DNA of 64,000 nt from Hyunsoonleella ulvae (GTDB lineage Bacteria; Bacteroidota; Bacteroidia; Flavobacteriales; Flavobacteriaceae), in contig NZ_JAEPJQ010000003.1 of the NCBI RefSeq assembly GCF_016827605.1, positions 62,001 to 126,000 on the forward strand, given 5' to 3'. Below, piece by piece: positions 6,607 through 57,542 of the stretch (the first letter of the stretch is position 1; each line of letters begins with the position of its first letter). The notes below the pieces were generated by a model. The model saw only the letters and a list, made by a program, of their open reading frames with translations, did not search any database and was not told the DNA's origin. A program made the translations under genes and the position numbers.

Positions 6607-8646
6607 TTAATAACTAATAACATAGGCTCCCTTTTTACCAGTTTGATGAAAAGGGAGTTTTTTGTTTTTACAAATAGATTCCCAGCGTTCTAAGTAAGAT
6701 TTATAATTACTACCATCAGCAATAATCATTTTAGGTTTTAAGGTATTAATTAGCCGTTCTAAATTTAGTTTAGGAGATTGTCTCAAAAGCACATAATCAG
6801 GTTTTAGTGTTGTTACTTTATATACTGCAGTACTGTCAATAACCAAAACCTTTTTCGATCCTAAAACAAAAAAAGAAGGAATAGTGTCGTACACAGTATT
6901 TTTTATGTGCGTTTTAACCTTAAAATCCTCAATTATTTTGTGTGTAGGTAGTGCAATACCATCAATATCATGACTTACTTTAATCTGGTTATTAAAAACT
7001 TGCCCAATCACACTGTTTCTGCTTTTATGAAATACAATAAACTGTTTTTCCGGTTTAGTGTATTTGGTATAGATAAAAGCACTTTGTACTAAAATTATAG
7101 CTATTAAAGCATATTTTAAGTTTGAATGATTCTTCCTGAAAAACCATCTAAAACTTGTAATGATAAGTGCATAAAACACCAAAACATATAAGAAGCTAAA
7201 AGAGATATCTTTAACTAAAAACGATTCTTGGTGGGATACCCAACTTACAAAACGGTTCATTATGCTTATAATAGAACCAAAAATAGAAGCTAATACCTGG
7301 GGGAGTAGATTTAAAAGCGCAAGCAGGATAATTAAAAGTCCTAGCCCTAAAATTAGCCCTAAAAAAGGAATAATAACCAGGTTAGAAACAAAGAATAGTA
7401 AAGGAAACTGATGGAAATAGTATAAGCTTAGCGGTAAAATACCAAATTGTGCAGCAACCGTAACGGTAAGCGTATGCCAATATTTATCTAATAACCAGTT
7501 TTTGGGTTGCCAAAGTTTATATAGAACAGGATCTAAGCTAACAATTGCAAAAACAGCCATATAGCTCAATTGAAATCCTACATCAAACAGAAAAAGAGGT
7601 TTAAACAATAGAATGATAAGTATGGAGATGGTAAGGGTGTTGTAGATATTTGTTGGACGGTTTAAATTCATGCCAATAGCAACAATACTAAACATGGTAA
7701 CGGCTCTTGTAACAGAGGCAGATAACCCCGCGATAATAGCAAAACCCCAAAGTATTAAAACTAATAAAATGGTCTTAATTAATTTACCATGTTTTAGTTT
7801 TTCCAGAGGTTTCAACACAAAGCTCAGGATAAGCAGAATAATACCAACGTGCAAACCAGATACCGCTAAAATATGTATCGCACCAGCATTGGTGTAATTT
7901 GTATAAACTTCCTTACTAATATCTTGGCGCTGCCCAAGTAATAATGCATTAATTATAGCTAATTCATCAGGCTTAAAATTGAATGGTTTTAGCTTAGAAT
8001 TTACATGTGTTCTAAAGGTATTTGCTAATCCAAAAACTGTAGTTTTAACGTTTCCAAGCTTCAGTAGAGAAGAGGTGTCAATAAATAACTGATGAAAGAT
8101 GTATTTCTTTTTAAGGTAAGCTTTATAGTTAAACTGACCTGGATTTAAAGCTCCAGTAAGGTGTTTAAAGTTGGTTCTAACAAGGTAAGTCTCATCTACG
8201 TCCAATGGATGTATCGTACTATCTTTTTGAATATTTAAAAGTGTTTTTCCTGTGGCTTTATTGTCGTCAACTTTAAGGATGTCGATGATATATTTGTCAT
8301 GATAATTTCCTGATTTTAATACCTCTCTAACTTGAAAATATATGGTATTTGGAGTTACTGTATCTTCAGAAATATGATTTGAATAATGGTTTGAAAAATG
8401 TACTTCATTATGAAGATTTACACTAAGCACACCCGCATTGGTCATGCAAAAAAACGCAACCAGACCAAACCATAAATTTTTAGTAAATTGTTGTTTTTGA
8501 ATGATGTATAAAACAAATAAAACAGCAATAGAAAGTGCATTTAAAACTATTGAAGTATAAAGTCCAATTGAAAAATAGTACCCGAGTAAAATACCAAGTA
8601 CTAAAAAAAAAGTAAGTTTTATTATGGTAAAGTTGAGCAGTTTCAT
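6607..8646 (-). CDS. comEC: ComEC/Rec2-family DNA-uptake channel protein
   Basis: Inner-membrane protein of the ComEC family, which in competent bacteria carries single-stranded DNA into the cytoplasm. An N-terminal membrane pair and soluble domain (DUF4131 type, to about residue 200) precede the Competence domain, whose hallmark LAVSGLHVGII lies near residues 255-265, followed by many membrane helices to about residue 510. The last 140 residues occupy the place of the metallo-beta-lactamase domain, but no HxHxDH metal motif is visible, so that domain is shortened and probably without nuclease activity. It is the last gene of the surE-lpxB operon and lies 22 nt after the NlpC/P60 gene. Competence itself is not demonstrated here. 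Confidence 0.88.
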   Translation of the reverse strand: MKLLNFTIIKLTFFLVLGILLGYYFSIGLYTSIVLNALSIAVLFVLYIIQKQQFTKNLWFGLVAFFCMTNAGVLSVNLHNEVHFSNHYSNHISEDTVTPNTIYFQVREVLKSGNYHDKYIIDILKVDDNKATGKTLLNIQKDSTIHPLDVDETYLVRTNFKHLTGALNPGQFNYKAYLKKKYIFHQLFIDTSSLLKLGNVKTTVFGLANTFRTHVNSKLKPFNFKPDELAIINALLLGQRQDISKEVYTNYTNAGAIHILAVSGLHVGIILLILSFVLKPLEKLKHGKLIKTILLVLILWGFAIIAGLSASVTRAVTMFSIVAIGMNLNRPTNIYNTLTISILIILLFKPLFLFDVGFQLSYMAVFAIVSLDPVLYKLWQPKNWLLDKYWHTLTVTVAAQFGILPLSLYYFHQFPLLFFVSNLVIIPFLGLILGLGLLIILLALLNLLPQVLASIFGSIISIMNRFVSWVSHQESFLVKDISFSFLYVLVFYALIITSFRWFFRKNHSNLKYALIAIILVQSAFIYTKYTKPEKQFIVFHKSRNSVIGQVFNNQIKVSHDIDGIALPTHKIIEDFKVKTHIKNTVYDTIPSFFVLGSKKVLVIDSTAVYKVTTLKPDYVLLRQSPKLNLERLINTLKPKMIIADGSNYKSYLERWESICKNKKLPFHQTGKKGAYVISY

Positions 8647-14922: not shown

Positions 14923-16896
14923 TTGATAGCAGCACATTCCATAGATCAAGTATTTGAAACCGCTCGTGTTGAAGAGGTTATAGGGGATTTTGTGCAGCTG
15001 AAAAAAGCTGGAAGTAACTATAAAGGTTTAAGTCCGTTTAGCGATGAACGCACCCCGAGTTTTATGGTGTCTCCAGTAAAACAAATATGGAAAGACTTTA
15101 GTACAGGAAAAGGGGGTAATGTTGTTGCTTTTTTAATGGAGCACGAACACTTTACCTACCCAGAAGCTATAAAATATCTCGCCAAAAAGTACAATATTGA
15201 TATAGAGGAAACCGAACAGAGTAATGAGCAAAAAGAAGCAGCCAATGAACGGGAAAGTTTGTACTTGGTTAATGAATTTGCAAACAGTTATTTTAAAAAC
15301 ATATTGCATAAAACCGATCAAGGAAAATCTATAGGATTAAGCTATTTTAAAGAGCGAGGGTTTACTGAGGAGACTATAAAGAAATTTGATTTAGGTTATT
15401 CGCTTGATGAATGGCAAGCCTTTACAGACGAAGCTTTAAAGAAAGGCTACCAATTAGAGTTTTTGGAAAAAACAGGGCTTACTATTGTAAAAGGGGAAAA
15501 ACAATTTGATCGTTTTAAAGGGCGTGTTATGTTTCCCATAAAAAGTATGAGCGGTCGTGTGCTAGGTTTTGGTGGGCGTATTTTAGTAAATGATAAAAAA
15601 GCTGCAAAATATTTAAACTCTCCAGAAAGCCTTATCTATTACAAAAGCAAAGTACTTTACGGTATTTATGATGCCAAACAAAGTATAGCGAAAGAGGATA
15701 ACTGTTATTTAGTTGAGGGATATACCGATGTTATTCAATTCCATCAAACAGGAATTAAAAATGTAGTGTCTTCTTCTGGGACAGCATTAACATCGGAGCA
15801 AATACGTTTAATAAACCGCTTAACCAATAATATCACGGTACTTTTTGATGGAGATGCAGCAGGGATGCGTGCATCGCTTCGGGGTATTGATTTAATTTTG
15901 GAGCAGGGCATGAACGTAAAGGTATGTACGTTTCCCGAAGGAGAAGATCCAGATAGCTTCGCAAAGCAGAATACACTTGAGGAATTAACGGTATATCTTG
16001 AAGAGAAAGCTAAAGACTTTATTCAATTTAAGGCTTCGATTTTGTATGAAGAAGCCAAAACAGACCCCATAAAAAAGGCAGAAACTATAAGGGATATTGT
16101 AAATAGTATATCTAAAATCCCCGATACCATAAAAAAGGAGGTTTACATACAAGAGTGTGCTCGTATTATGGATATTAGCGAGGAAGTACTCTTTACAACC
16201 TTAGCACAAATCAATCAAAAGGGACTAAGAGAAGAAAATAGAAAATATAAGCAAGAAAAAAACAACCTAGAGCTGATCAAGAATGATCAATCTATAAAAA
16301 AAGTAGATGTCCAATATAGTTTAGAACGTGACATAATTGAAATTCTTTTGCTATATGGGAATGAGATAGAAGATTTTGAAGATTTAGTACTGAAAGAAAA
16401 TGATGAAGGAGATTTAATAATGGAACCTGTAATTCAACAAGCAAAGGTTTTTGAAAAAATTTATCTAGATTTACAAGAGGATGAAATGGAATTTGCAAAC
16501 AATACTTTCAAAAATATTTATTACACTGTCATTGATAAAATGAACTTAAATTCTGATCTAAAACCTCAAAGTCTTTTTAATAGTCTAGATTCTCAATCTT
16601 CAACAGAAATCAGTTCAATGCTTATGATTGATGAGAAATATTGGCTAAGTGATTGGCATCGTAAAAATATTTTTCCAAAATTAAAACAAAACTCTATCGA
16701 ACAATTGGTTCGTGAGACCATACTTAGCCTTAGGTGTTATTTGGTATACAAGAAAGTGGATGAACTAATGCAAAAGACTAAGAATGATATTTCTAATACC
16801 CATAAAGAAATATTGAATGAAATAAATGATTACAACGAATTAGAAAAACTCTTGACAAGAAAATTAAACAGATTAAGGCTTGCTGATTTAAATTAA
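14923..16896 (+). CDS. dnaG: DNA primase
   Basis: Makes RNA primers for replication and binds the replicative helicase through its C-terminus. The TOPRIM core is clear: LVEGYTDVI with the catalytic Glu and LFDGDAAGMRAS with the DxD. The N-terminal domain aligns with the CHC2 zinc finger, but all four zinc ligands are replaced (Ser37, Ser40, Asp58, Thr61 where E. coli has Cys, His, Cys, Cys). The start is TTG: an in-frame stop lies 33 nt upstream with no ATG between, and the protein beginning at the TTG matches the flavobacterial DnaG N-terminus. The length of 657 aa is normal. Directly downstream lies a 42-codon remnant resembling a second DnaG tail. Confidence 0.94.
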   Translation: MIAAHSIDQVFETARVEEVIGDFVQLKKAGSNYKGLSPFSDERTPSFMVSPVKQIWKDFSTGKGGNVVAFLMEHEHFTYPEAIKYLAKKYNIDIEETEQSNEQKEAANERESLYLVNEFANSYFKNILHKTDQGKSIGLSYFKERGFTEETIKKFDLGYSLDEWQAFTDEALKKGYQLEFLEKTGLTIVKGEKQFDRFKGRVMFPIKSMSGRVLGFGGRILVNDKKAAKYLNSPESLIYYKSKVLYGIYDAKQSIAKEDNCYLVEGYTDVIQFHQTGIKNVVSSSGTALTSEQIRLINRLTNNITVLFDGDAAGMRASLRGIDLILEQGMNVKVCTFPEGEDPDSFAKQNTLEELTVYLEEKAKDFIQFKASILYEEAKTDPIKKAETIRDIVNSISKIPDTIKKEVYIQECARIMDISEEVLFTTLAQINQKGLREENRKYKQEKNNLELIKNDQSIKKVDVQYSLERDIIEILLLYGNEIEDFEDLVLKENDEGDLIMEPVIQQAKVFEKIYLDLQEDEMEFANNTFKNIYYTVIDKMNLNSDLKPQSLFNSLDSQSSTEISSMLMIDEKYWLSDWHRKNIFPKLKQNSIEQLVRETILSLRCYLVYKKVDELMQKTKNDISNTHKEILNEINDYNELEKLLTRKLNRLRLADLN

Positions 16897-45256: not shown

Positions 45257-48200
45257 ATGTCATTAAAAAAGCTCTTTGCTGTCGTAATGGTAATTGCGTT
45301 AGCTATATCCTGTAAAAAGAAAGCAGTAGAAACAGATAATATCTTTAAATTCCGAGATTACGTCAGCTATACCACTTCTGGAATGACATCGGTAGCAAAT
45401 CCTATTCAAATTAATTTAGCGAATGATGTAGAAGGTTGGGAAATGGGACAGGAAATAACCGATAACATTGTTTCCATCACACCACATGTGGAAGGTAAAT
45501 TAACCGTTACCAACAAACATACTTTAGCATTTACACCAGATGAGCATTTAGAGCCTGATACCGAATATACCGTTACTGTTAAACTGAAAGATATCTACAA
45601 AAACATGCCTGATGGTTTTGAAAACTACACCTTTCAGTTTAAAACCATAACCCCTAGTTTTAATCTGGTTACCAATAGTTTACAATCCTACAGTAAGGAA
45701 TGGCAATATTTGGAAGGTGTTATAAAATCTGCTGATATTATTTCTATTAAGGATGCAAAGCGGTTGGTGGAAGCGTCGCAAAATGGTAAAAAACTAAATA
45801 TTGTTTTTAATGAATTGAATGCCAGTTCTAAACATTTTGAATTTAAAATTGATAGTATTAATCGTTTAGTTGAAGACAGTAAAATTTTGGTAAAATGGAA
45901 TGGAAGCCCTATTAAAGCAGTTAATAAGGGCGAAAACACAGTATTAATTCCAGGTAAAAATAACTTTACCATCGTTGATGTCGAAGTAACACAGTCGCCC
46001 GAGCAATTTTTATCCATTAACTTTTCTGACCCTCTTAAAAAACAGCAAAATTTTGATGGCTTAGTATCCATTCAAAAAGTAAAAAACCCAAGGTTTATAG
46101 TCGAAGGAAACCTACTTAAAGTGTATCCAGATAGTAAACTAGTGGGCAATATTCAAGTGGATGTATTTCAAGGTATCAAAAATGAAGAAGGTTATAAATT
46201 GAAAACTCCTTTTTCTGAAACGATTGCTTTTGAAGATTTAAAACCACAGGTAAGATTGATTAGCAACGGTACAATTTTACCTAATTCGCAAGAATTGAAA
46301 TTCAATTTTGAAGCGGTAAATTTAAGTGCGGTGGATGTGAGAGTGATTAAGATTTTTGAAGACAATATATTACAATTTTTACAGGACAATAACCTAAACA
46401 GCAATAACCGATACGATATTAAAAAAGTAGGAAGACGTATTGCAAAACAAACTATTCAGTTGCAAACCTCGGCTGAAAACACAGGGAAATGGAAAGCTTA
46501 CAGCATCGATTTGTCCAAATTTTTTAAAGCAGATGCAGGCGCTATTTATCGTGTGGAATTAAGTTTTGATAGACGATATTCACTATATGATTGTGAAGCT
46601 AACAATCCGAGTACTACAAATGATGAAGACGATTATTATGACGACTATTACGAGGAAGATTACTATGAAGAAAATGATGATGATTTAGCCTCAGGAGATG
46701 AAGAGCTCCGAGAGGAAATGTATTGGGACAATTTGTTATATCGCTATAAAAATTACAGCTATAACTGGCGAGAAGAACAAAACCCTTGTCATGATGCATA
46801 TTACAATGAGCGTAAAATCGTTTCTCAAAACTTATTGGCATCCAATTTGGGTGTTATTGCAAAACGAGGTGGTAATAATTCGTATTATTTCGCAGTAACA
46901 GATATTTTAAGCATTTCCCCTGTGGGTAACGCAAAAGTATCATTATATAACTTTCAACAGCAAGAAATAGCAAGTCGCACAACTGATGAGGAGGGCTTAA
47001 CAATCATTGATGCAGACCACCACGCTAATTTCGCCATTGTTTCAAAAGGAAATAACACCACCTATGTAAAGCTGCACGATGGTAACTCTTTATCCTTAAG
47101 TAAGTTTGATGTCTCTGGTCATCGTTTACAACGTGGATTGAAAGGCTATTTGTATGGCGAACGAGGTGTATGGCGCCCAGGAGACACCTTACATTTAACC
47201 TTTATGTTGAATGATAATGCTAATCCGCTACCAAAACAACATCCTGTAAAATTAGAAATTACCGACCCTAATGGAAAACTTGTGCACAAACATGTAACTA
47301 CAGACAATCTCAATAATTTTTACAAGTTTACGGTGCCTACATCTACAGAGGATAAAACTGGAAATTATAATGCTAAAATTTCCATTGGTGGGGCAACTTT
47401 TAACAAAGGTTTAAAAATTGAAACCGTAAAACCTAATCGGCTTAAATTAAAAGTCGATTTTGAAGATGAAATTTTAACAAATAACACACCGCTAAAGGGT
47501 ACCTTGGATGTAAAATGGTTACACGGCGCACCTGGGAAAAACCTGAGAGCAGAAGTAAAAGCAAAATTTAGTACGGCTTACACCGCTTTTAAAAATTATA
47601 AGGATTATACCTTTAATGATCCTACACGTAAATTTCAGATGGAAGACATTAATGTATTTGAGGGGAAAGTGAATGAAGAAGGATTAGCCTCAATTAATAA
47701 AAAACTTAATGTAGGCAAAAATGCTCCGGGGATGTTAAATGTGCAATTTTTGGTTCGTGCTTTTGAAAACGGTGGCGATTTTTCCCTAGATGCCTTTACT
47801 AAAACATATGCGCCATACAATGCCTTTGTTGGCTTGCGTTTGCCAAAAGGGAACGCTTATGGTTCGTTTTTTACAGATGAAAATCAAACCTTTGATGTAG
47901 TTACCGTAGATACAAATGGGAAACCCATACAACGCAACAATCTTGAAGTTAAAATTTATAAAGTAGAGTGGCGTTGGTGGTGGAATTCTTCTTACGATGA
48001 TTTAGCAAGCTATGTGTCAAGCAGATATCATAGGCCTTTTAAATCCATAAAAGTGAATACAGATGTCAATGGTAAAGCTAACTTCAACATAAATATTCCA
48101 GATACTAAACGTGGACGCTATTTAGTAAGGGTGGTTGATCCTAAAAGCGGTCATGCCACAGGACGTACCGCATATTTCTATAAAAACTGGTGGCAAAAAG

Positions 48201-50833
48201 CACCATCTAGCGATAAAGAAGCGGCTAAAATGTTAGTGTTTTCCTCTGATAAAGAAAAGTATAATGTTGGCGAAAACGCCAAAGTTACATTTGCCTCAGG
48301 AAGCGAAGGTCGCGCTTTGGTAAGCATTGAAAATGGTACTGAAGTTTTAGACTATAAATGGGTAAAAACAGTAAAAGGCGAAACCACGGTAGATATTCCT
48401 GTAACCAAGGAAATGGCACCCAATGTATTTGTTAATATTTCTCTATTACAACCGCATGCCATAACCGCTAATGATTTACCTATTAGACTATATGGTGTAA
48501 TTCCCATGATGGTTGAAAATCCCGATACTAAATTGTACCCAGAAATACAGATGCCAGAGCAGTTAAGACCTGAGCAAACCTTTAAAGTGAAAATCTCTGA
48601 AAAAGATAATAAACCCATGACCTACACCATTGCTATGGTTGAAGAAGGCTTGTTGGATTTAACCCGATTTAAAACACCAAATGCGTGGAACGAGTTTTAC
48701 AAACGTGAAGCCTTGGGGGTAAAAACTTGGGATGTATTTGATGATGTAATTGGTGCGTATTCCGGAAGTATAGACCAAGTATTTGCTATTGGTGGAGATG
48801 GCAGTGCAGCAGGCGGTAAAAACAAAAAAGCCAACCGGTTTAAACCCGTAGTAACCTATTTAGGACCTTTTAAACTGGATGCTGGAAAAACCAAAACCCA
48901 CCAAATAAAACTGCCTAATTATATTGGTTCTGTACGTACTATGGTGGTTGCAGGGAATAACAGCAATGAAGCTTATGGAAGTGTAGACAAAACCGTTCCT
49001 GTAAAAAAACCTTTGATGGTTTTAGCTACGCTTCCTCGAAAATTGAGCCCTGGCGAAAAAGTAACCTTACCTGTTACGGTTTTTGCGATGGAACCTAAAG
49101 TGAAAAATGTCAATATTAGTTTAAAATTGAGTGATGGCATTTCGGTTGTTGGCAATGCTAAAAAGACTTTGAGCTTTGCTAAACCCGATGAGCAAATGGC
49201 ATATTTTAAACTAGATGTAAGTAAAGCCAAAGGTATTAATACGGTTGAAGTAATCGCTACAGGAAATGGAGAAACGTCAAAATATAAAGTAGAGCTGGAT
49301 GTGGAGAATACAAATCCTGTAACGTCAAAATCTATTGATAAAACGGTAGTTGCCAACGCTTCTGAAACTATAGGGTTTTCAACCTTTGGTGTAGCGGGTA
49401 CAAATACTGCAACTGTGGAGTTTTCAACATTACCAGCTATGGATTTTACAAGGCGTTTGCAATATTTAATTCGCTATCCTCATGGTTGTGTAGAGCAAAC
49501 CACATCTAGCGTATTTCCGCAATTATTTTTAGAAGATATTTTTGATCTCACTTTTGAAAAGAAACAACAAATTAGAGATAATGTTGAAAAAGGTATTCAA
49601 CGATTAGGACGCTTTCAAAGACCAAATGGCGGATTAAGTTATTGGATGGGAGAAAATAGCGCTAACGATTGGGGAACGAGTTATGCAGGGCATTTTATGA
49701 TTGAGGCCGAGAAAAAAGGCTATGTGTTACCGCTTACCTTTAAAAGTAGTTGGTTGAAATACCAAAAACAAACCGCTAGAAATTGGCGTCCAAGCTACAG
49801 ACGTTATAATTCTGATTTGGCCCAAGCATATCGTTTATACACTCTTGCTTTGGCTGGAAGCCCAGATTTAGCCAGTATGAATCGCTTGCGGGAATTCAGT
49901 GAAATTTCAAATGAAGCCAAATGGCGATTGGCAGCGGCTTATGCCTTGGCTGGACAGAAAGAAGCCAGTGATAAACTTTCGGAAATGGCTAATATTGAAT
50001 TTAAATCGCTTCGCTATAATTCTTATACGTATGGCTCTGTGGATAGAAATCGTGCCATGGCTCTGGAGACTATGGTGTTAACTAAAAACCCAAAAACTCG
50101 TGATTTGGCTGAAACCATTGCCAAAAGCCTCTCTAGTGATAAGTGGATGAGCACACAAACCACAGCATATAGTTTATTGGCAATGGCAAAAATGGTAGGC
50201 GCAAATGGAGGGAAAGCCCTACATGTAAGCTATAACATTAACGGTTCTTCTGAAACCATACAAACTAAAAACGCCGTTGCCCAAAGACAGCTAAAAATTG
50301 TTGATGGAAGCAACGCAATAGCCATAAATAACAAAGAAAATAATGTAGTATACGTTCGTGTATTGAATTCTGGAAAGCTACCTCTTGGGCAGGAGTTGGT
50401 GGAAAAAAGAGGTTTAAGCGTTTCAGTACAATACAAAGATTTACAAGGCAGTACAATTGATATTACTAAACTAATGCAAGGTCAGGATTTTGTGGCTACC
50501 GTTAGTGTAAGTAATCTAAAAAACTACAATATTAATGATGTGGCCCTAACGCAAATTTTCCCTTCGGGATGGGAAATTGTAAATACCCGGTTTACAGCGT
50601 TTGGAGACACAACCTCTAATAAAGCGCGCCATATAGATATTAGAGACGACCGCGTGAATTTCTATTTTGACTTAAGCAAAAGCGGAAATTCCAATAGCTC
50701 CAAAACATTCTCGGTAATGCTAAATGCTAGTTATTTAGGCTCTTATTACTTGCCTGGAATTCAAGCGGAAGCAATGTATGATAACGACTTTTTAGTACGA
50801 ACTAAAGGGAAGTGGATAACAATTATTAAATAA
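45257..50833 (+). CDS. Bacterial alpha-2-macroglobulin lipoprotein
   Basis: 1858 aa, one of the largest proteins expected outside T9SS adhesins. The lipobox AISC (Cys19) anchors it, presumably in the periplasm. MG-type beta domains run through most of the chain; the MG2 region begins near residue 630 with GYLYGERGVWRPGDTLHL. The reactive thioester motif is intact, with Cys1411 and Gln1414 in HGCVEQTTSS, so it can bind attacking proteases covalently as E. coli YfhM-type proteins are thought to do. Residues about 455-480 form an Asp/Glu/Tyr-rich patch. PBP1C, its usual genomic partner, is 4.3 kb downstream. Bait-region cleavage sites cannot be predicted. Confidence 0.93.
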   Translation: MSLKKLFAVVMVIALAISCKKKAVETDNIFKFRDYVSYTTSGMTSVANPIQINLANDVEGWEMGQEITDNIVSITPHVEGKLTVTNKHTLAFTPDEHLEPDTEYTVTVKLKDIYKNMPDGFENYTFQFKTITPSFNLVTNSLQSYSKEWQYLEGVIKSADIISIKDAKRLVEASQNGKKLNIVFNELNASSKHFEFKIDSINRLVEDSKILVKWNGSPIKAVNKGENTVLIPGKNNFTIVDVEVTQSPEQFLSINFSDPLKKQQNFDGLVSIQKVKNPRFIVEGNLLKVYPDSKLVGNIQVDVFQGIKNEEGYKLKTPFSETIAFEDLKPQVRLISNGTILPNSQELKFNFEAVNLSAVDVRVIKIFEDNILQFLQDNNLNSNNRYDIKKVGRRIAKQTIQLQTSAENTGKWKAYSIDLSKFFKADAGAIYRVELSFDRRYSLYDCEANNPSTTNDEDDYYDDYYEEDYYEENDDDLASGDEELREEMYWDNLLYRYKNYSYNWREEQNPCHDAYYNERKIVSQNLLASNLGVIAKRGGNNSYYFAVTDILSISPVGNAKVSLYNFQQQEIASRTTDEEGLTIIDADHHANFAIVSKGNNTTYVKLHDGNSLSLSKFDVSGHRLQRGLKGYLYGERGVWRPGDTLHLTFMLNDNANPLPKQHPVKLEITDPNGKLVHKHVTTDNLNNFYKFTVPTSTEDKTGNYNAKISIGGATFNKGLKIETVKPNRLKLKVDFEDEILTNNTPLKGTLDVKWLHGAPGKNLRAEVKAKFSTAYTAFKNYKDYTFNDPTRKFQMEDINVFEGKVNEEGLASINKKLNVGKNAPGMLNVQFLVRAFENGGDFSLDAFTKTYAPYNAFVGLRLPKGNAYGSFFTDENQTFDVVTVDTNGKPIQRNNLEVKIYKVEWRWWWNSSYDDLASYVSSRYHRPFKSIKVNTDVNGKANFNINIPDTKRGRYLVRVVDPKSGHATGRTAYFYKNWWQKAPSSDKEAAKMLVFSSDKEKYNVGENAKVTFASGSEGRALVSIENGTEVLDYKWVKTVKGETTVDIPVTKEMAPNVFVNISLLQPHAITANDLPIRLYGVIPMMVENPDTKLYPEIQMPEQLRPEQTFKVKISEKDNKPMTYTIAMVEEGLLDLTRFKTPNAWNEFYKREALGVKTWDVFDDVIGAYSGSIDQVFAIGGDGSAAGGKNKKANRFKPVVTYLGPFKLDAGKTKTHQIKLPNYIGSVRTMVVAGNNSNEAYGSVDKTVPVKKPLMVLATLPRKLSPGEKVTLPVTVFAMEPKVKNVNISLKLSDGISVVGNAKKTLSFAKPDEQMAYFKLDVSKAKGINTVEVIATGNGETSKYKVELDVENTNPVTSKSIDKTVVANASETIGFSTFGVAGTNTATVEFSTLPAMDFTRRLQYLIRYPHGCVEQTTSSVFPQLFLEDIFDLTFEKKQQIRDNVEKGIQRLGRFQRPNGGLSYWMGENSANDWGTSYAGHFMIEAEKKGYVLPLTFKSSWLKYQKQTARNWRPSYRRYNSDLAQAYRLYTLALAGSPDLASMNRLREFSEISNEAKWRLAAAYALAGQKEASDKLSEMANIEFKSLRYNSYTYGSVDRNRAMALETMVLTKNPKTRDLAETIAKSLSSDKWMSTQTTAYSLLAMAKMVGANGGKALHVSYNINGSSETIQTKNAVAQRQLKIVDGSNAIAINNKENNVVYVRVLNSGKLPLGQELVEKRGLSVSVQYKDLQGSTIDITKLMQGQDFVATVSVSNLKNYNINDVALTQIFPSGWEIVNTRFTAFGDTTSNKARHIDIRDDRVNFYFDLSKSGNSNSSKTFSVMLNASYLGSYYLPGIQAEAMYDNDFLVRTKGKWITIIK

Positions 50834-50967: not shown

Positions 50968-51831
50968 ATGAAAACATATATTTATATAATAGCTGTATTA
51001 ATAGGGTTTAATGCAGTTAACGCACAAGAGATTAGATACGTAAACGCTGATAATGGCCTATTTTTAAGGGAAACACCTAATCAAGGATCAAAGCGTGTGG
51101 ATAAATTAGTTTACGGTACCGCTCTGGAAGTTACTGAACGCACCAATTTAAAGCTTGATGTTAAAGACGATAATACTGTTATTTCAGGGGAATGGGTAAA
51201 GGTTACCTGTACGGATGATTTATATAATAACAGAACAGGCTATGTGTTTAATGGGTTTTTAACAGATAGAAAACTTGAAAAACGTTTTAGTATAGATTTT
51301 GAGGATTTTAAAATAGAGTTTAACAATTTGAGGGCGGAAATTATTGGAGACCCACAAGTTGCCGTACACGATGCAAGTACTGTTGATGCGTTTATAGATT
51401 TTGGAGAGACCTTAAAAAATAAAACCATTAGAATACGACACCATTCCAAGTACAAGGATGTAAAAGTGTTTCAAAAGTATGAAAGTAGTATTGCTATACA
51501 TGGCGATGCGTCGTACTGTCATTTAGAAGATTGGAAACATTTTTATTCCGCTTGGGAGCCCTTAAAAACTAAGCATAAAAATAGTGTGTTTAAAACCGTT
51601 TCATACGATAATAAATCGGTAAATCAATTTGTTGAGGTAGATATCAACGCCTTTAAAGACAAGGTAAAAGGACATTGTGGCGAAGATTGGGTTTCTCATA
51701 TAAAGGATAACAATACTATTAATGAAGGTGCAGCTAAAATCGTGATGAGTAAAATGTATTTTAAAGTGATTTTTACCACGCTTGAGAATAAAAAAGTTGA
51801 GAAAATTATAGCTTTTGATATGCCAATTTAA
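50968..51831 (+). CDS. Secreted SH3-domain protein of unknown function
   Basis: 287 aa. A signal peptide (cleavage near VNAQ, residue 19) precedes a bacterial SH3 domain at about 22-98 (NGLFLRETPN, GEWVKV, GYVFNGFL). The remaining 190 residues show no motif I know. SH3 domains of this kind may bind cell-wall peptides, which fits the position between the alpha-2-macroglobulin and PBP1C genes. It may be transcribed with the former, although the 117-bp repeat lies between. Function is unknown. Confidence 0.78.
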   Translation: MKTYIYIIAVLIGFNAVNAQEIRYVNADNGLFLRETPNQGSKRVDKLVYGTALEVTERTNLKLDVKDDNTVISGEWVKVTCTDDLYNNRTGYVFNGFLTDRKLEKRFSIDFEDFKIEFNNLRAEIIGDPQVAVHDASTVDAFIDFGETLKNKTIRIRHHSKYKDVKVFQKYESSIAIHGDASYCHLEDWKHFYSAWEPLKTKHKNSVFKTVSYDNKSVNQFVEVDINAFKDKVKGHCGEDWVSHIKDNNTINEGAAKIVMSKMYFKVIFTTLENKKVEKIIAFDMPI

Positions 51832-51877
51832 AGCCAGGATAATGAGGTAGATGAACAAAGTAATAGGTTTTAGCGCA

Positions 51878-51960
51878 ATGAAAAGGTTAGATGTGTAGGT
51901 CTAGCTATTATGGGTGTGACCTATTACTTTTGTTTGCCCAAACAGGTATTGCAGAGTTAA
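51878..51960 (+). pseudogene. Strongly decayed fragment of a pbpC 5' end
   Basis: In one frame this stretch encodes YYFCLPKQVLQS and a stop. The PBP1C of this window has YYLCLPKQLFKD at its N-terminal membrane anchor. The upstream ATG (MKRL) is out of frame with it, so at least one frameshift has occurred. DNA similarity to the intact gene is about 24 of 35 over the best part. Its position left of the first jellyroll gene mirrors the clearer fragment left of the second one. Short length keeps confidence moderate. Confidence 0.45.
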
Positions 51961-52041
51961 CAACAATGGTTTGTAGAGGTAATAAATTTATAACAAATGC
52001 AACCAGAGCTTTGAAGGAAAAGATCGCACAAATGTTATAAC

Positions 52042-53370
52042 CTATTTCGTTGTATATTGTCTTGTTACAGAGTTATAACCATATTTAGATTTGTAATAAA
52101 TTGTTTCTATTATCACAACATAGCCTTTAGGATGCCCTTTTTTTATAATTTTTTCGTTGGTTTGAACGTATTTACCAATTACACCATCAATCCAAACTTT
52201 ATCAAGACAAACTTTAGTACCCTGCTTTACAATAATAACACGTTTATATGTTTTGGCTAGTTTTTTTCTATCAATAAATAGAGGAACTGTATTTATTTTT
52301 GGAGTTTCTATAGATAAACTCAGGCCATTCAATCCCTTTTTTTCTAAACTGTTTATTTTTCTAGCAGTTGGTCTTCTTATTGTAATGGGTTTTTCTTTTG
52401 AAATGCCTATCTCATAAATATCTGAATACGAATAGCACAAACTATTATCTAAATTTTGTGGATTCTCGGCAACTTTTGCTCTGTAAAAGATTTTAGAATT
52501 TGTAGGGGCTATTTTATAAGTGTCTTTTTTTGCTTTAGGAATGTCATCCCAGTTTATACCATCTTTACTCTTTTGCCATTGGTAGAAGTGATTAGAAAAA
52601 ACGCTATAGTCTGGCTTTAACTTTAAAGTTGTTGAAAATGGTAAATACCCTTTGTTAACAGAAACCCTTTTTTTATTATTTTTATCCAGAACAACTACGT
52701 TATCGCCGCAAGGCTTAAAAGCTATATCATCTAAGGCTAAATCGTTACCACAACCACCTTTTCCGTTATTTCTAATTTTTAAAATAACCGATGTTTCATT
52801 TGGTCTGGTTTGAAATACTAGTGCGAATTGCCTCCATGTTGGTTTAGAGCCTCCGTATATTGAACCCGTGCTACCACTAGCGAGCAGTGTTTTGTTTGAT
52901 TTATTCCATATTTCAAAAGTTACATCAATTGGAATACCTCTACCACATGCTTTTGTATATTCTTGCGTTAAATTGACCATCCATGATGAAAATTCATAAG
53001 ATGTATTTTCACAAAGCCCAGAAACTGGTACTCTAAAAAACTCACCAGGTTCAAAACCAGCATTTATAATAAGCATTCTTCCATTATTATCTCCGGGAGT
53101 ATGATCATTAAGCTTATACCAATTAAAGTGTTTGTGCGTGTTTGAAACCACATAACACCCATCTTTAGGTCTATTCTTTGTGAACTTATATGTGGTTGTT
53201 CCAAAAGGCAGTTTCACGTTACCAATACCGCTACCAAAATCTTCTGTAAAAATAGGATTGCCTGTATTTCCATTACAAAAGCCCAATTGTGCTTCTGCAT
53301 TAAAAAGACCTAAAAAGAATAGTAAAACCGTTGTTGTTTTTTTTATAGTTTTTAATAAAACTAATGGCAT
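52042..53370 (-). CDS. Secreted jellyroll/Ig-like protein, paralogue 1
   Basis: 442 aa. Signal peptide to about residue 27 (NAEAQ), then LGFCNGNTGNPIFTEDFG and a beta-sandwich domain ending in GCGNDLALDDIAF with CGD, as in adhesion modules of large Bacteroidota surface proteins. An Ig-like segment follows (about 250-325; HFYQWQKSKDGINWDDI), and a basic C-terminal domain of about 80 residues (KVWIDGVIGKYVQ, KYGYNSVTRQYT) shared only with its paralogue. No T9SS sorting domain is seen, so it may stay in the periplasm. Roughly half of the residues match paralogue 2. Function is unknown; the location suggests an envelope role with PBP1C or the macroglobulin. Confidence 0.8.
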   Translation of the reverse strand: MPLVLLKTIKKTTTVLLFFLGLFNAEAQLGFCNGNTGNPIFTEDFGSGIGNVKLPFGTTTYKFTKNRPKDGCYVVSNTHKHFNWYKLNDHTPGDNNGRMLIINAGFEPGEFFRVPVSGLCENTSYEFSSWMVNLTQEYTKACGRGIPIDVTFEIWNKSNKTLLASGSTGSIYGGSKPTWRQFALVFQTRPNETSVILKIRNNGKGGCGNDLALDDIAFKPCGDNVVVLDKNNKKRVSVNKGYLPFSTTLKLKPDYSVFSNHFYQWQKSKDGINWDDIPKAKKDTYKIAPTNSKIFYRAKVAENPQNLDNSLCYSYSDIYEIGISKEKPITIRRPTARKINSLEKKGLNGLSLSIETPKINTVPLFIDRKKLAKTYKRVIIVKQGTKVCLDKVWIDGVIGKYVQTNEKIIKKGHPKGYVVIIETIYYKSKYGYNSVTRQYTTK

Positions 53371-53492
53371 AATTTTCTATTGATTGATGAAAGTTTATTT
53401 GTAAGTAGATTGTAGTAATATATTGTTACACGTAATAATAGGTTAATTTTGAAAAAGCGTCTTAAACTTATCTTAAAATACATCCAAACACC

Positions 53493-53500
53493 TATTTTAG
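53493..53500 (+). promoter_or_regulatory. -7-like box in front of the duplicated pbpC 5' end
   Basis: TATTTTAG lies 18 nt ahead of the truncated pbpC copy. The corresponding place ahead of intact pbpC has TACTTTAG (55167-55174). The upstream stretch AAACTTATCTTAAA is also shared, so the promoter was duplicated with the coding fragment. Confidence 0.35.
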
Positions 53501-53518
53501 ACAGTACTTACTATATAA

Positions 53519-53668
53519 ATGAAACACATAATAAGCTACATAAAAAAAAGAAGACTTAAATTCTTAATCTTTACCTTCCTTTCATTAGCTTATTATTTAT
53601 GCTTGCCTAAAAAATTATTTAAAGATCCAACTGCTACAGTAATTACAAGTGTAATCATATGTGGTTAG
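53519..53668 (+). pseudogene. Truncated duplicate of the pbpC 5' end
   Basis: A 49-codon frame reproduces the first 44 residues of PBP1C (cytoplasmic tail, membrane anchor YYLCLPK, then FKDPTATVITS) and then ends in VIICG and a stop. Positions 53535-53654 match 55207-55326 at 117 of 120 bases. The rest of the gene is absent. The promoter region is also partly copied. If translated, it would be a small single-helix membrane peptide. It separates the two jellyroll paralogues and marks a duplication or recombination junction. Confidence 0.85.
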
Positions 53669-53714
53669 ATAAATAAGTATAATGTTTATATGATCAAAAA
53701 ATACTATGAGCTAA

Positions 53715-55064
53715 TTATTTAGATTTAACTTTTATTGTATACGTTCTTTTCTTAGAGTTATAACCATAAGCAGATTTGTAATAAACAGTTTCGTCTATTA
53801 TGATATCTCCTTTATCATCTCCTTTTCTTATGATTTTTTCACTGGCTTGAACATAAAAACCTACAGCTCCATCTATCCAAACTTTATCTGTAATAATATT
53901 TAAACCGTCTTTTACTATAATAACTTCTTTATAGGTTTTAGGAAGTTTACTTGTAACTGTAAGCTTTGTTTTAGATGATTTTTTTTTAACAGTAAGACTA
54001 TCTTTTAACTCTTCAATTGCTTTTTCATTTTCTTTAATATTGACTGATAGTTTAGACTTGGTCTTCCTTTTTAGTTTTATGTCCGGCTCAATTATGTTAA
54101 TTTTAAAATAATCTGAAATTAACTGACATGAAGTATTTAAAAGGTTACTGGCATCTTCGGCAACCAAGACCCTATAGTAAGATGTTTTTCTCAAGTTTTT
54201 TATAGAAAAATTATTTTTGGTAGCCCCTTCTATATTTTCCCAATTAGTATCATCTATACTTTTTTGCCATTGGTAAAAATGTGATGTAAATACTGCAAAA
54301 TCTGGAATTGCGGTAAGCTGTGTTGTATAAGGAAAATTAGTTTGTGAAATATTAATGCTGTTTTTGTTTTTTGACGCATCTTCTATTATAACGGTATCGC
54401 CACAGGTTCTAAACATGATATCGTCAATGGCTAAATCATTACCACAACCACTAGATCCGTTGTTACGCATTTTTAGAATTACCGATGTTTGTTTTGGAGC
54501 AGTTTTAAAAACCAAACCATATTGTTGCCAATTTGGAGAATTTGAGCCATATATATCTCCTGTGTTTCCTTGTTTAATGATAAAACTATTGGTACTATCC
54601 CAAATCTCGAAAGTAACATTTATTGGGTTTGCAACTTGATTGCCGCTATAGCCACATACCTTATGATAATAAGGAAACAAATTGATTAACCACGAAGTAA
54701 ACTCATAGGTTGTGTTTTCACATAGACCAGAAACGGGTATTGTAAAAAACTCTTCTGGAAGGTTATTGGCATTTACAATTAAACACCTACCATCCTTATC
54801 ATTTGGAGTATGGTCTTTAGTGATAAACCACCCATAATAATTTGTGTTACTAGACACTTTATAAAAACCGTCTCTTGGAGACCCTTGCGTAAAACTGTAG
54901 GTTGTACGCCCTGGGTTTAATTCACTATCAATTCTTCCTGTTCCAAAAGTTTCAATAAAAATGGGGTCGCCAGAGTTACCTCCACAAAACCCTAGTTGTG
55001 CTTGTAGATGAGAAATAAATGCAAAGCATAAAAGAAAGTAACTGCAACAAATTAATTTTAACAT
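53715..55064 (-). CDS. Secreted jellyroll/Ig-like protein, paralogue 2
   Basis: 449 aa with the same plan as its neighbour: signal peptide to about residue 22 (HLQAQ), LGFCGGNSGDPIFIETFG, a beta-sandwich closing with GCGNDLAIDDIMF and CGD, an Ig-like segment (HFYQWQKSIDDTNWENI), a Lys-rich linker of about 50 residues that is longer than in paralogue 1, and the conserved basic C-terminus (KVWIDGAVGFYVQ, AYGYNSKKRTYT). It is divergent from the intact pbpC, 126 nt away, and the shared spacer should hold both promoters. Function unknown. The divergence between paralogues contrasts with the near-identity of the pbpC fragments next to them. Confidence 0.8.
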   Translation of the reverse strand: MLKLICCSYFLLCFAFISHLQAQLGFCGGNSGDPIFIETFGTGRIDSELNPGRTTYSFTQGSPRDGFYKVSSNTNYYGWFITKDHTPNDKDGRCLIVNANNLPEEFFTIPVSGLCENTTYEFTSWLINLFPYYHKVCGYSGNQVANPINVTFEIWDSTNSFIIKQGNTGDIYGSNSPNWQQYGLVFKTAPKQTSVILKMRNNGSSGCGNDLAIDDIMFRTCGDTVIIEDASKNKNSINISQTNFPYTTQLTAIPDFAVFTSHFYQWQKSIDDTNWENIEGATKNNFSIKNLRKTSYYRVLVAEDASNLLNTSCQLISDYFKINIIEPDIKLKRKTKSKLSVNIKENEKAIEELKDSLTVKKKSSKTKLTVTSKLPKTYKEVIIVKDGLNIITDKVWIDGAVGFYVQASEKIIRKGDDKGDIIIDETVYYKSAYGYNSKKRTYTIKVKSK

Positions 55065-55190
55065 ATTGATTTTAAGATGATTGATGGTAAATTCGAAAGT
55101 ACAATAATCTTTTTAGTCTCTTTTGACAAAATATCATAAACTTATCTTAAACTACATCTAAATACTTACTTTAGTAAGTAGATATCTTAT

Positions 55191-57542
55191 ATGAACACTA
55201 TAGTAGGCTACATAAAAAAAAGAAGACTTAAATTCTTAATCTTTACCTTCCTTTCATTAGCTTACTATTTATGCTTGCCTAAACAATTATTTAAAGATCC
55301 AACTGCTACAGTAATTACAAGTATAAACAATGAATTATTGGGTGCTAAAATTGCTAAAGATGGGCAATGGCGATTTCCACATAATGATAGTGTGCCAGAG
55401 CAGTTTAAAACCTGTATTGTTCAATTTGAAGACGAGTACTTTTATAAACATCCTGGATTTAATCCTGTATCTATTTGTAAAGCGCTTCGTGATAATTTAA
55501 AGTCGGGTACCGTTAAACGTGGTGGTAGTACCTTAACGCAACAAGTAATCCGGTTATCTAGAAAAGGACAGAAGCGTACGTATTTCGAAAAATTAAAGGA
55601 ACTTATATTGGCAACACGTTTGGAACTTAGAGCCTCTAAAGAGGAAATTTTAGCGTACTACTCTAGTAATGCACCTTTTGGTGGGAATGTTGTGGGACTA
55701 GATGCTGCTTCTTGGCGCTATTTTAATAGAAGCCCGCACGATTTATCTTGGGCAGAAAGTGCCACTTTAGCAGTCTTGCCCAATGCGCCTAGTTTAATTT
55801 ATCCTGGAAAGCGACAAAATCACTTACTGGAAAAGCGAAACAGATTATTAAAAAAGTTATTGAAAAATAGTATTATCGACTCCTTAACTTTCGAGCTTTC
55901 AATAGCCGAGACTTTACCACAAAAGCCATATCCTTTGCCGCAAATAGCACCACACTTACTACAAAATATAGCGAAAACACACAAAGGAGAGTTTGTAAAA
56001 ACAACTATAGATAAAGCGTTTCAAATACAGGTAAATCAGATTGTGAAAACCCATTATGATCAGCTAAGTCAGAATGAAATTTATAATGCAGCGGTGTTGG
56101 TTTTAGATGTTAATACTAGAAAAGTTATGGCTTATGTAGGTAATACACCAACAGATAAATTCCACCAAAACAAAGTGGATATTATCGATAAACCACGAAG
56201 TACAGGTAGTATTTTAAAGCCATTTTTATACGCTGCCATGTTAGATAGTGGCGATTTACTTCCCAATACCTTGGTTGCAGATGTACCTACACAGTTTGGG
56301 AATTACAATCCTGAAAACTATAACAAAACGTATCAGGGTGCAGTACCTGCAAGTAGGGCTTTAGCTAAATCTCTAAATATTCCTGCAGTTAGGATGTTGC
56401 AAGATTTTGGATTGGATAGGTTTCATCATTATTTAGAACAATTGCAATTGAGGGATTTAAAATATACTGCAAATCATTACGGTTTGTCACTTGCCCTTGG
56501 AGGCGCAGAAAGTAACCTCTGGGATTTATGTAAAAGTTATGCAGCCCTATCGTCTACTTTAAACCATTTTACTGAAACCTCCAGTGAATATTTTGAAAAT
56601 GAATTTTGTGAGCCTACTTTTTTGGCTTCTGAAACTATTGATTTTGATAACAGAACAACAAGTAAGATACTTTTTGATGCTGCCTCAATTTATTTAACGT
56701 ATGAAAGTTTAAAGGAAGTGAACCGTCCAGAAAGTGATGAGAGTTGGGAGTTTTTTGATGGCTCTAAGCAAATTGCCTGGAAAACTGGAACAAGCTTTGG
56801 TTTTCGAGATGCTTGGGCTATCGGTACTACTAAAGATTATGTAGTAGGCGTGTGGGTAGGGAATGCCGATGGTGAAGGACGACCAGGATTAGTAGGTGTA
56901 CAAGCTGCAGCACCCATACTTTTTGATGTATTTGATGTTTTGCCAAATAGTGAATGGTTTGCAAAACCTTATGATGAAATGCAGGAAGTTTCCATTTGTA
57001 AACTGAGTGGTTATCGTGCTTCGCCAGATTGTGATGACATCAAAGTTACATATATTCAACAAAGTGGATTAAAAACTAAACCTTGCCCGTACCATAAATT
57101 AGTACATCTTAACCAAGAAGAAACATATCAAGTGAATACCTCTTGTGAAGATTTATCTGCCATTACACATAAATCTTGGTTTGTGTTGCCACCTTTAATG
57201 GCATATTATTACAAAACAAAAAACCCGTTTTATAAAACCTTACCCAAATTTCGAGAAGATTGTTTGGGCGGTAATTCTATTTCAATTGAATTTATATACC
57301 CAAAAGCCAATAACACTATTTTTTTACCTAAGGATTTTGATGGAGAAACAAATGATTTAATTTTAAAAATTGCACATTCCAAACCAGAAAGTACGGTGTT
57401 TTGGTATTTGAATGATGTATTTATTGGCGTAACCAAAGATATTCATGAATTAGCAATACAGCCTAAAACAGGAAAACACATGATAACAGTAGTTGATGAG
57501 TTTGGAAGTGAGGCGAAACGTAGTTTAGAAATATCAAGATAG
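55191..57542 (+). CDS. pbpC: Penicillin-binding protein 1C
   Basis: 783 aa bifunctional peptidoglycan synthase of the PBP1C class. Membrane anchor at about 13-29; transglycosylase domain with Glu80 in FEDEYFYKHPG and GGSTLTQQV; transpeptidase domain with Ser340-x-x-Lys343 in GSILKP, Ser394-Leu-Asn396 and Lys531-Thr-Gly in KTGTS; and a C-terminal BiPBP_C beta domain. All expected active-site motifs are intact. PBP1C genes travel with alpha-2-macroglobulin genes in many bacteria, and a role in wall repair after attack has been proposed. Two broken copies of its 5' end lie upstream. A possible -7 box (TACTTTAG) is 16 nt before the start. Confidence 0.95.
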   Translation: MNTIVGYIKKRRLKFLIFTFLSLAYYLCLPKQLFKDPTATVITSINNELLGAKIAKDGQWRFPHNDSVPEQFKTCIVQFEDEYFYKHPGFNPVSICKALRDNLKSGTVKRGGSTLTQQVIRLSRKGQKRTYFEKLKELILATRLELRASKEEILAYYSSNAPFGGNVVGLDAASWRYFNRSPHDLSWAESATLAVLPNAPSLIYPGKRQNHLLEKRNRLLKKLLKNSIIDSLTFELSIAETLPQKPYPLPQIAPHLLQNIAKTHKGEFVKTTIDKAFQIQVNQIVKTHYDQLSQNEIYNAAVLVLDVNTRKVMAYVGNTPTDKFHQNKVDIIDKPRSTGSILKPFLYAAMLDSGDLLPNTLVADVPTQFGNYNPENYNKTYQGAVPASRALAKSLNIPAVRMLQDFGLDRFHHYLEQLQLRDLKYTANHYGLSLALGGAESNLWDLCKSYAALSSTLNHFTETSSEYFENEFCEPTFLASETIDFDNRTTSKILFDAASIYLTYESLKEVNRPESDESWEFFDGSKQIAWKTGTSFGFRDAWAIGTTKDYVVGVWVGNADGEGRPGLVGVQAAAPILFDVFDVLPNSEWFAKPYDEMQEVSICKLSGYRASPDCDDIKVTYIQQSGLKTKPCPYHKLVHLNQEETYQVNTSCEDLSAITHKSWFVLPPLMAYYYKTKNPFYKTLPKFREDCLGGNSISIEFIYPKANNTIFLPKDFDGETNDLILKIAHSKPESTVFWYLNDVFIGVTKDIHELAIQPKTGKHMITVVDEFGSEAKRSLEISR

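What the first reader, a model, noticed from the sequence alone, without database searches (positions are those of the whole stretch)
51878..55326. Broken pbpC 5' ends interleaved with two jellyroll genes
Reading left to right the order is decayed pbpC fragment, jellyroll gene 1, near-identical pbpC fragment, jellyroll gene 2, intact pbpC. Each jellyroll gene is flanked by a pbpC start in the same orientation. This is what repeated duplication of a jellyroll plus pbpC-start unit, or repeated recombination using the pbpC start as homology, would leave. It suggests that the locus gains and loses jellyroll genes.
Basis: seen in the sequence. Interest (0 to 1): 0.7.

Follow-up and report, generated by a model that had tools for sequence, protein, structure and literature searches.

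The report
Jellyroll genes swapped at pbpC's start
Beside a cell-wall enzyme gene (pbpC), marine flavobacteria appear to gain, lose and exchange genes for jellyroll proteins by recombination in the first codons of pbpC, and broken pbpC beginnings left in this genome record two such events.

Summary
Three pbpC beginnings alternate with two jellyroll (J) genes: an old remnant (51847-51950), J1, a nearly intact start (53519-53668), J2, live pbpC. All 12 same-genus and all 7 Seonamhaeicola-genus genomes searched hold pbpC. Their J content there is none, J1, J2, J1+J2, long J, or long J+J2. Displaced pbpC starts recur in four other species, always at the tail of a short J gene: 6 of 9 short J, 0 of 53 long J tested. 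In 397 family genomes, 200 have a pbpC-start match and 2 have more than one. Simple tandem duplication fits poorly: J1 and J2 are 49% identical, and J1 is closer to another genus than to a congener although its flanks are not. In S. aphaedonensis a J2 tract shared with a relative begins inside a pbpC fragment and ends just before live pbpC. Family-wide, when near relatives differ by a J gene beside pbpC, PbpC codons 1-24 differ too and similarity returns at codon 25. So J plus pbpC start behaves as a recombination cassette. DNA entry and function are not shown.

The parts
45257..50833 (+). bacterial alpha-2-macroglobulin (A2M) gene, left border of the variable interval
   Evidence: Pfam A2M_BRD, bMG domains
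50968..51831 (+). SH3-domain gene, native left neighbour of pbpC in J-free relatives (L086, L164, L165, L166)
   Evidence: Pfam SH3_3; layouts
51847..51950 (+). remnant 1: decayed native pbpC start after the SH3 stop
   Evidence: 0 of 1000 shuffles reach the alignment score to L086; HMM E 0.0009; same spacing from the SH3 stop as L086
52042..53370 (-). J1, short jellyroll gene, 442 aa
   Evidence: congener with J1 directly beside pbpC: L087
53371..53518 (.). J1-type divergent upstream region of displaced start 2
   Evidence: the stretch 53379-53654 matches the J1-pbpC region of L087 at 76% over 289 columns
53519..53668 (+). displaced pbpC start 2: open ORF of 49 codons, PbpC-like for its first 44
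   Evidence: 2 of 114 nt differ from live pbpC in codons 7-44
53715..55064 (-). J2, short jellyroll gene, 449 aa
   Evidence: relatives with pbpC fragments in L039, L089, L167
55065..55190 (.). J2-type divergent upstream region of live pbpC
   Evidence: alignment with the J1-type region
55191..57542 (+). intact pbpC; codons 7-44 (55209-55322) repeat 53537-53650
   Evidence: TIGR02073 above cut-off; repeat

Best explanation
The unit 'J gene + divergent promoter + first codons of pbpC' moves as one recombination cassette, with its joint in the conserved pbpC segment around codons 25-45 (YYFCLPKQLFKDPTATVITS and its neighbours). Each exchange swaps the J gene and rebuilds the 5' end of pbpC, so pbpC stays whole. 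In the short-J lineages the left join often fell inside the resident pbpC start, which leaves a displaced pbpC beginning at the tail of the new J gene. In the window this most likely happened twice: J1 + start went into the native SH3-pbpC junction (remnant 1), then J2 + start went into J1-pbpC (start 2). A J gene between two pbpC starts is flanked by direct repeats that allow further exchange or clean loss. Shown by sequence: order, recurrence, tract boundaries in one pair, discordant histories. Inferred: homologous recombination with DNA from relatives. Predicted only: recombination between 53537-53650 and 55209-55322 deletes J2 and leaves pbpC in frame. The route of DNA entry is unknown.
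For: Displaced pbpC starts at 6 of 9 short-J tails and 0 of 53 long-J tails; more than one pbpC start in 2 of 200 family genomes with a match. J2 occurs in three left contexts: after J1 (window, L039), after a long J (L089), after SH3 (L167). L039 and L167 share the fragment-J2 junction and are 96.8% identical over 1600 nt from inside the fragment through J2, then 79.5% in the next 190 nt; pbpC 86.1%, A2M 86.9%. J1 of the window is 83% identical to L039's (other genus) and 78% to L087's (same genus), while A2M is 77% and 88% and pbpC 77% and 84%. Sister pairs with one J beside pbpC lose 0.51 identity in codons 1-24 against 0.10 for pairs without J, p 6e-5, and recover at codon 25. Winogradskyella L081/L082: 95.7% identical to the SH3 stop, J present in L082 only, similarity resumes about 50 nt into pbpC.
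Against: One genome per species was seen, so no exchange within a species is shown. Three of nine short J genes (L039 J1, L162 J1, L087 J1) have no clear pbpC fragment at the tail, and no long J has. Pairs without J but with different upstream genes also lose identity in codons 1-24 (0.25 in 8 pairs), so anchor replacement is not peculiar to J. The first codons evolve fast even without J (codons 17-24: 0.79 in no-J pairs). WIN-L089 J2 similarity (88%) is what vertical descent within the genus predicts. The AU test against window + L087 J1 is weak (p 0.037, group named after the tree was seen). The right end of the L039/L167 tract lies about 70 nt before pbpC, not inside codons 25-45. The window J2 tail and the L089 J2 tail share no clear junction.
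Confidence: 0.72

Rival explanations
1. One ancient in-place tandem duplication of J + pbpC start made J1 and J2, and species with one J later lost the other. No transfer is needed; the near-identity of start 2 and live pbpC comes from later gene conversion.
For: J1 and J2 are sister clades among J proteins; window and L039 share the order J1-fragment-J2-pbpC; within Seonamhaeicola and within the window's genus J2 follows genus lines.
Against: J2 in L167 sits after a fragment of the native SH3-pbpC junction, not of a J1-pbpC start, and in L089 after a long J. J1 and J2 differ strongly in divergence for the same species pair (83% and 62%). The L039/L167 tract is more alike than its flanks. Remnant 1 needs a separate event.
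Confidence: 0.15
2. The displaced starts are kept for a function, for example a short membrane peptide or a promoter element; recombination only made them once.
For: Start 2 of the window and the fragments of L089 and L167 keep an open start with the PbpC anchor; fragment pN/pS against relatives is 0.16-0.45, in the range of live genes.
Against: Remnant 1 and the L039 fragment are broken by stops; low pN/pS is also expected if the fragments were cut recently; most relatives lack any fragment.
Confidence: 0.08
3. A site-specific recombinase or transposon moves J into pbpC's start.
For: Four of the fragments end near codons 42-46 by alignment (window both, L039, L167).
Against: The window interval holds only SH3, J1 and J2 as substantial genes; no tRNA in 10 loci scanned; L089's fragment ends near codon 60; tract ends differ between cases.
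Confidence: 0.05

Closest known systems
Rhs main/orphan module arrays (PMC3967940; passages read)
   Same: Displaced fragments of a gene lie beside the full gene and share near-identical DNA that can recombine (there 95% over 522 bp).
   Different: There 3' toxin ends are displaced; here it is the 5' end of a cell-wall gene, and the cargo is a separate, divergent gene.
Homology-facilitated illegitimate recombination (PMC3240628; abstract and outline seen)
   Same: One homologous and one non-homologous end would leave a pbpC fragment, J, and a rebuilt pbpC.
   Different: It is a laboratory-described process; here only its possible traces are seen, and the L039/L167 tract has homology at both ends.
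Elements that insert in a gene's 5' end and supply a new start, such as SXT-type elements in prfC (recalled, not from a call)
   Same: The target gene receives a new 5' end.
   Different: No integrase gene in the interval, and the unit is essentially one gene.
A2M-PBP1C gene pair of E. coli (PMC4498604; passages read)
   Same: A2M and pbpC lie together.
   Different: There no J gene is described in the passages read; here J genes split the pair.

Membership tests
PbpC (penicillin-binding protein 1C) | TIGR02073 match above its cut-off; Transgly, Transpeptidase and BiPBP_C domains | tested here: met
   690 bits against cut-off 494; Pfam domains
Bacterial A2M | A2M bait-region and MG domains | tested here: met
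T9SS type B secreted protein | C-terminal sorting domain (TIGR04131 / CHU_C) | tested here: not met
   no match in window J1 and J2; the two long J scanned match, and 16 of 24 aligned J proteins match CHU_C (which does not name them; 16 of the 24 are long J)
J family (jellyroll + Ig, this study) | similarity to the jellyroll/Ig part of long J proteins | tested here: met
Integrase-borne or transposon element | recombinase gene in the unit | tested here: not met
   ORFs between A2M and pbpC are SH3, J1 and J2 besides short overlapping ORFs
Displaced-module arrays kept by homologous recombination (Rhs-like) | displaced fragment of the main gene with near-identical shared DNA | tested here: met
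   2 of 114 nt differ
Displaced-module arrays kept by homologous recombination (Rhs-like) | observed switching between arrangements within a strain or species | not testable with these tools
   one genome per species held

The most novel reading that the evidence does not exclude
A conserved stretch of about 60 nt in a housekeeping gene (pbpC codons 25-45) serves as a family-wide recombination joint. The A2M-pbpC locus is an exchange site for jellyroll proteins in which each exchange also replaces the PbpC membrane anchor, and J genes flanked by pbpC starts can be gained and cleanly lost without an integrase.
Probability: 0.45. Interest if true: 0.7.

Novelty: new variant of a known kind. Interest (0 to 1): 0.5.

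Why it matters
Intermediates still readable in the DNA show how a variable gene for an exported protein can be swapped beside an enzyme gene by using that gene's own first codons as the splice point. The N-terminal anchor of PbpC in these bacteria then does not share the history of the rest of the protein, which matters for trees and annotation. It gives a direct test: precise loss of J2 leaving an intact pbpC.

Tried and rejected
Simple tandem duplication as the full account: see the first rival. tRNA-based integration: ARAGORN found no tRNA in the 10 loci scanned. A general rule that any J insertion displaces the start of its head-side gene: over 53 long-J tails (4 of 57 at a contig edge left out) the best score was 31 against pbpC starts and 31 against the head-side gene's start; the cut of 45 was set after shuffles of the short-J tails reached at most 44. 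Competence genes as support: ComEC-like and DprA-like genes are present, but both searches also hit E. coli, so they say little. pN/pS of fragments: not decisive (its two rows for window start 2 are void, my start was one base off; one search corrects the start for the identity count only). First HMM scans for displaced starts of neighbour genes gave no comparable fragments for DUF2071, SH3 and monooxygenase genes; for the monooxygenase gene two hits in L077 look like one broken gene, and the A2M rows were gene starts that my ORF calls had trimmed.

Literature (open-licence PMC only): pbpC + alpha-2-macroglobulin + Bacteroidetes, 0 papers; penicillin-binding protein 1C + alpha-2-macroglobulin, 1 paper (passages); penicillin-binding protein 1C + Bacteroidetes, 2 papers, listing only; Hyunsoonleella + Seonamhaeicola + horizontal gene transfer, 0; T9SS/cassette terms, 5 papers, listing only; Rhs orphan terms, 2 papers; homology-facilitated illegitimate recombination, 44 papers, 20 listed.

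Hand decisions: L005 and L071 were set to 'J' and L077 to 'none' by hand, and L045 was left out (104 of 105 loci). In one search L005 was set to 'J'. The automatic label of L089 was overwritten. Nine loci that repeat same-genus genomes were left out of the scans; some other genomes are still in twice (for example L096 and L167, L041 and L163).
Full report
WHAT IS THERE. The window carries A2M (45257-50833), an SH3-domain gene (50968-51831), remnant 1 of a pbpC start (51847-51950), J1 on the minus strand (52042-53370), displaced pbpC start 2 (ORF 53519-53668), J2 on the minus strand (53715-55064) and intact pbpC (55191-57542). pbpC passes the TIGR02073 cut-off. Start 2 and the live start are a 142-nt direct repeat at 92%. 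Codons 7-44 differ at 2 of 114 nt, while codons 2-6 hold 6 differences and the upstream part is much less alike. Remnant 1 is decayed. It matches the SH3-pbpC junction of a congener without a J gene there (L086; 0 of 1000 shuffles), with nearly the same spacing from the SH3 stop, and is not specially like its own live gene. DNA searches of the own genome found start 2 only at itself and at live pbpC, and remnant 1 only at itself.

WHAT J IS. J1 and J2 are 49% identical. The model of J2 (mean pLDDT 65, pTM 0.59, C-terminal third mostly under 50) resembles MAM-Ig and CBM4-type jellyroll structures with low overall TM-scores. J1 and J2 have no Pfam or NCBIfam match at the cut-offs used. Of 24 aligned J proteins 16 match the T9SS sorting domain CHU_C; the alignment holds 16 long and 8 short J, and the two long J scanned singly carry the type B sorting domain while J1 and J2 do not. 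The short J genes (438-491 aa) form one group (SH-aLRT 98) with a J1 clade (100) and a J2 clade (97) in a quick tree of 97 rows. In 397 genomes of the family, 76 have a J relative at E <= 1e-40.

THE LOCUS VARIES. pbpC was found in 12 of 12 same-genus genomes and 7 of 7 genomes of G383's genus, which contains Seonamhaeicola aphaedonensis (L039) by its coordinates. In the window's genus the A2M-pbpC side holds J1+J2 (window), J1 (L087), a long J plus a frameshifted J2 (L089), a long J (L090, L091, L092), a 1529-aa sorting-domain relative (L085), or no J found (L086, L088, L093, L094, L095; in L093-L095 no A2M was seen in the fetched stretch). In the Seonamhaeicola genus it holds J1+J2 (L039), J2 (L167), J1 (L162), J1 next to another J-like gene (L041, L163), or no J before pbpC (L164, L165, L166; L166 has a long J after pbpC). 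On a pbpC-body tree J presence needs at least 29 changes over 104 loci; shuffled labels need 34.5 on average, and 15 of 500 shuffles need 29 or fewer. Turnover is high, with some inheritance left.

EXTRA pbpC STARTS ARE SPECIFIC. An HMM of the PbpC N-terminus was run over six frames of the fetched loci (six more loci; 149 sequences and 2.8 Mb in all, some overlapping). Outside live pbpC genes it hits the window (two), L039, L089 and L096/L167 (one genome, fetched twice), and one weak place inside an unrelated ORF (L112, E 0.047). Reversed sequences give none under 0.05. By alignment score (cut 45), 6 of 9 short J genes beside pbpC have a pbpC start at the tail (window J1 and J2, L039 J2, L089 J2, L167 J2, L041 J1) and 3 do not (L039 J1, L162 J1, L087 J1; L087 scores 35, reached by 1 of 200 shuffles), against 0 of 53 long J genes (the short-J panel had one more target). 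In 397 family genomes searched with a 70-position profile, 200 have a match and two have more than one: the window's genome (3) and G383 (2) (the tool scored at most 15 candidates per genome, so weak remnants could be missed). The fragments are rare and tied to short J genes. The J2 cases of L039 and L167 share a junction, so independent events are fewer than six.

WHY EXCHANGE AND NOT JUST DUPLICATION. First, J2 sits in three left contexts: J1 (window, L039), a long J (L089, whose fragment and upstream part are 80% identical over 298 nt to the pbpC start of Jejuia pallidilutea), and SH3 (L167). Second, L039 and L167 share one fragment-J2 junction and are 96.8% identical over 1600 nt from inside the fragment through J2; identity is 79.5% in the next 190 nt, 86.1% in pbpC and 86.9% in A2M (I set the tract limits from the profile). 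The left end lies in a pbpC start, the right end about 70 nt before the other. Third, J1 of the window is closer to L039's (83%) than to its congener's in L087 (78%), while A2M (77%, 88%) and pbpC (77%, 84%) say the reverse (AU p 0.037 against window + L087, group named after seeing the tree). Fourth, for the pair window-L039, J1 is 83% and J2 62% identical. J2 of window and L089 (88%), by contrast, fits descent within the genus.

A FAMILY-WIDE JOINT. Winogradskyella L081 and L082 are 95.7% identical over 6.4 kb up to the SH3 stop; then L082 has a J gene, and similarity resumes about 50 nt into pbpC at 87%. Among 26 mutual-nearest pairs, PbpC codons 1-24 are 0.10 less identical than the body when neither has J beside pbpC (15 pairs), 0.51 when one has (5 pairs; Mann-Whitney p 6e-5) and 0.39 when both have (6 pairs). 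In one-J pairs identity rises from 0.42 (codons 17-24) to 0.90 (codons 25-32); in no-J pairs from 0.79 to 0.97. A stricter control, pairs without J but with different upstream genes, gives 0.25 (8 pairs), against 0.48 for one-J pairs (17 pairs), p 2e-4, and 0.11 for no-J pairs with the same upstream gene (16 pairs); species recur between these sets. So exchange upstream of pbpC in general tends to take the anchor codons along, and J exchange most.

HOW IT PROBABLY WORKS. Shown: recurrence, one well-bounded tract, discordant histories. Inferred: homologous recombination in or near the conserved stretch around codons 25-45, with incoming DNA from relatives. A single crossover with a circular donor, or one homologous and one non-homologous end, would each leave a J gene between two pbpC starts. 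The near-identity of codons 7-44 then reflects a recent crossover or gene conversion. Predicted, not shown: recombination between the two repeats deletes J2 and leaves pbpC in frame.

COMPARISON. It works like displaced-module arrays such as Rhs orphans (PMC3967940, passages), but the displaced part is the 5' end of a cell-wall gene and the cargo is a separate gene. It is not an integrase element by what lies in the interval. In E. coli A2M and PBP1C genes are often in one operon (PMC4498604, passages). My paper searches, listed in Tried and rejected, showed no account of this locus.

Noticed in passing
L038 6805-8998; L023 8314-8943; L024 5419-6760: DUF559 (PF04480) genes in the same A2M-pbpC interval are flanked by direct repeats (248 nt at 97% in L038, 88 nt at 99% in L023), and L024 has a tandem array of a unit of about 565 nt (Pfam run on the L038 gene). 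This looks like a second kind of repeat-flanked insert.
   Followed up: partly
L019 899-2776; L118 8083-9972; L010 4624-6888; L021 11340-13610; L030 11349-13670; L102 13511-15781; L127 11045-13048; L166 about 15724-16716: Long J genes also sit head to head with A2M (L019, L118) or directly after pbpC (the others), so J moves around the whole A2M-pbpC neighbourhood.
   Followed up: no
L097 8995-10404: A short J2-like gene in an Algibacter-group genome (G028) with no pbpC in the fetched stretch and no pbpC start at its tail.
   Followed up: partly
alignment A2, C-terminal part: The J profile matches the C-terminal 377 residues of grappling hook protein A of Aureispira (9flp, E 2e-51) through profile positions 304-620, a part that the long J proteins carry.
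   Followed up: no
window about 7141-7944: ComEC-like competence-family gene on the minus strand (placed; coordinates converted from the contig).
   Followed up: no
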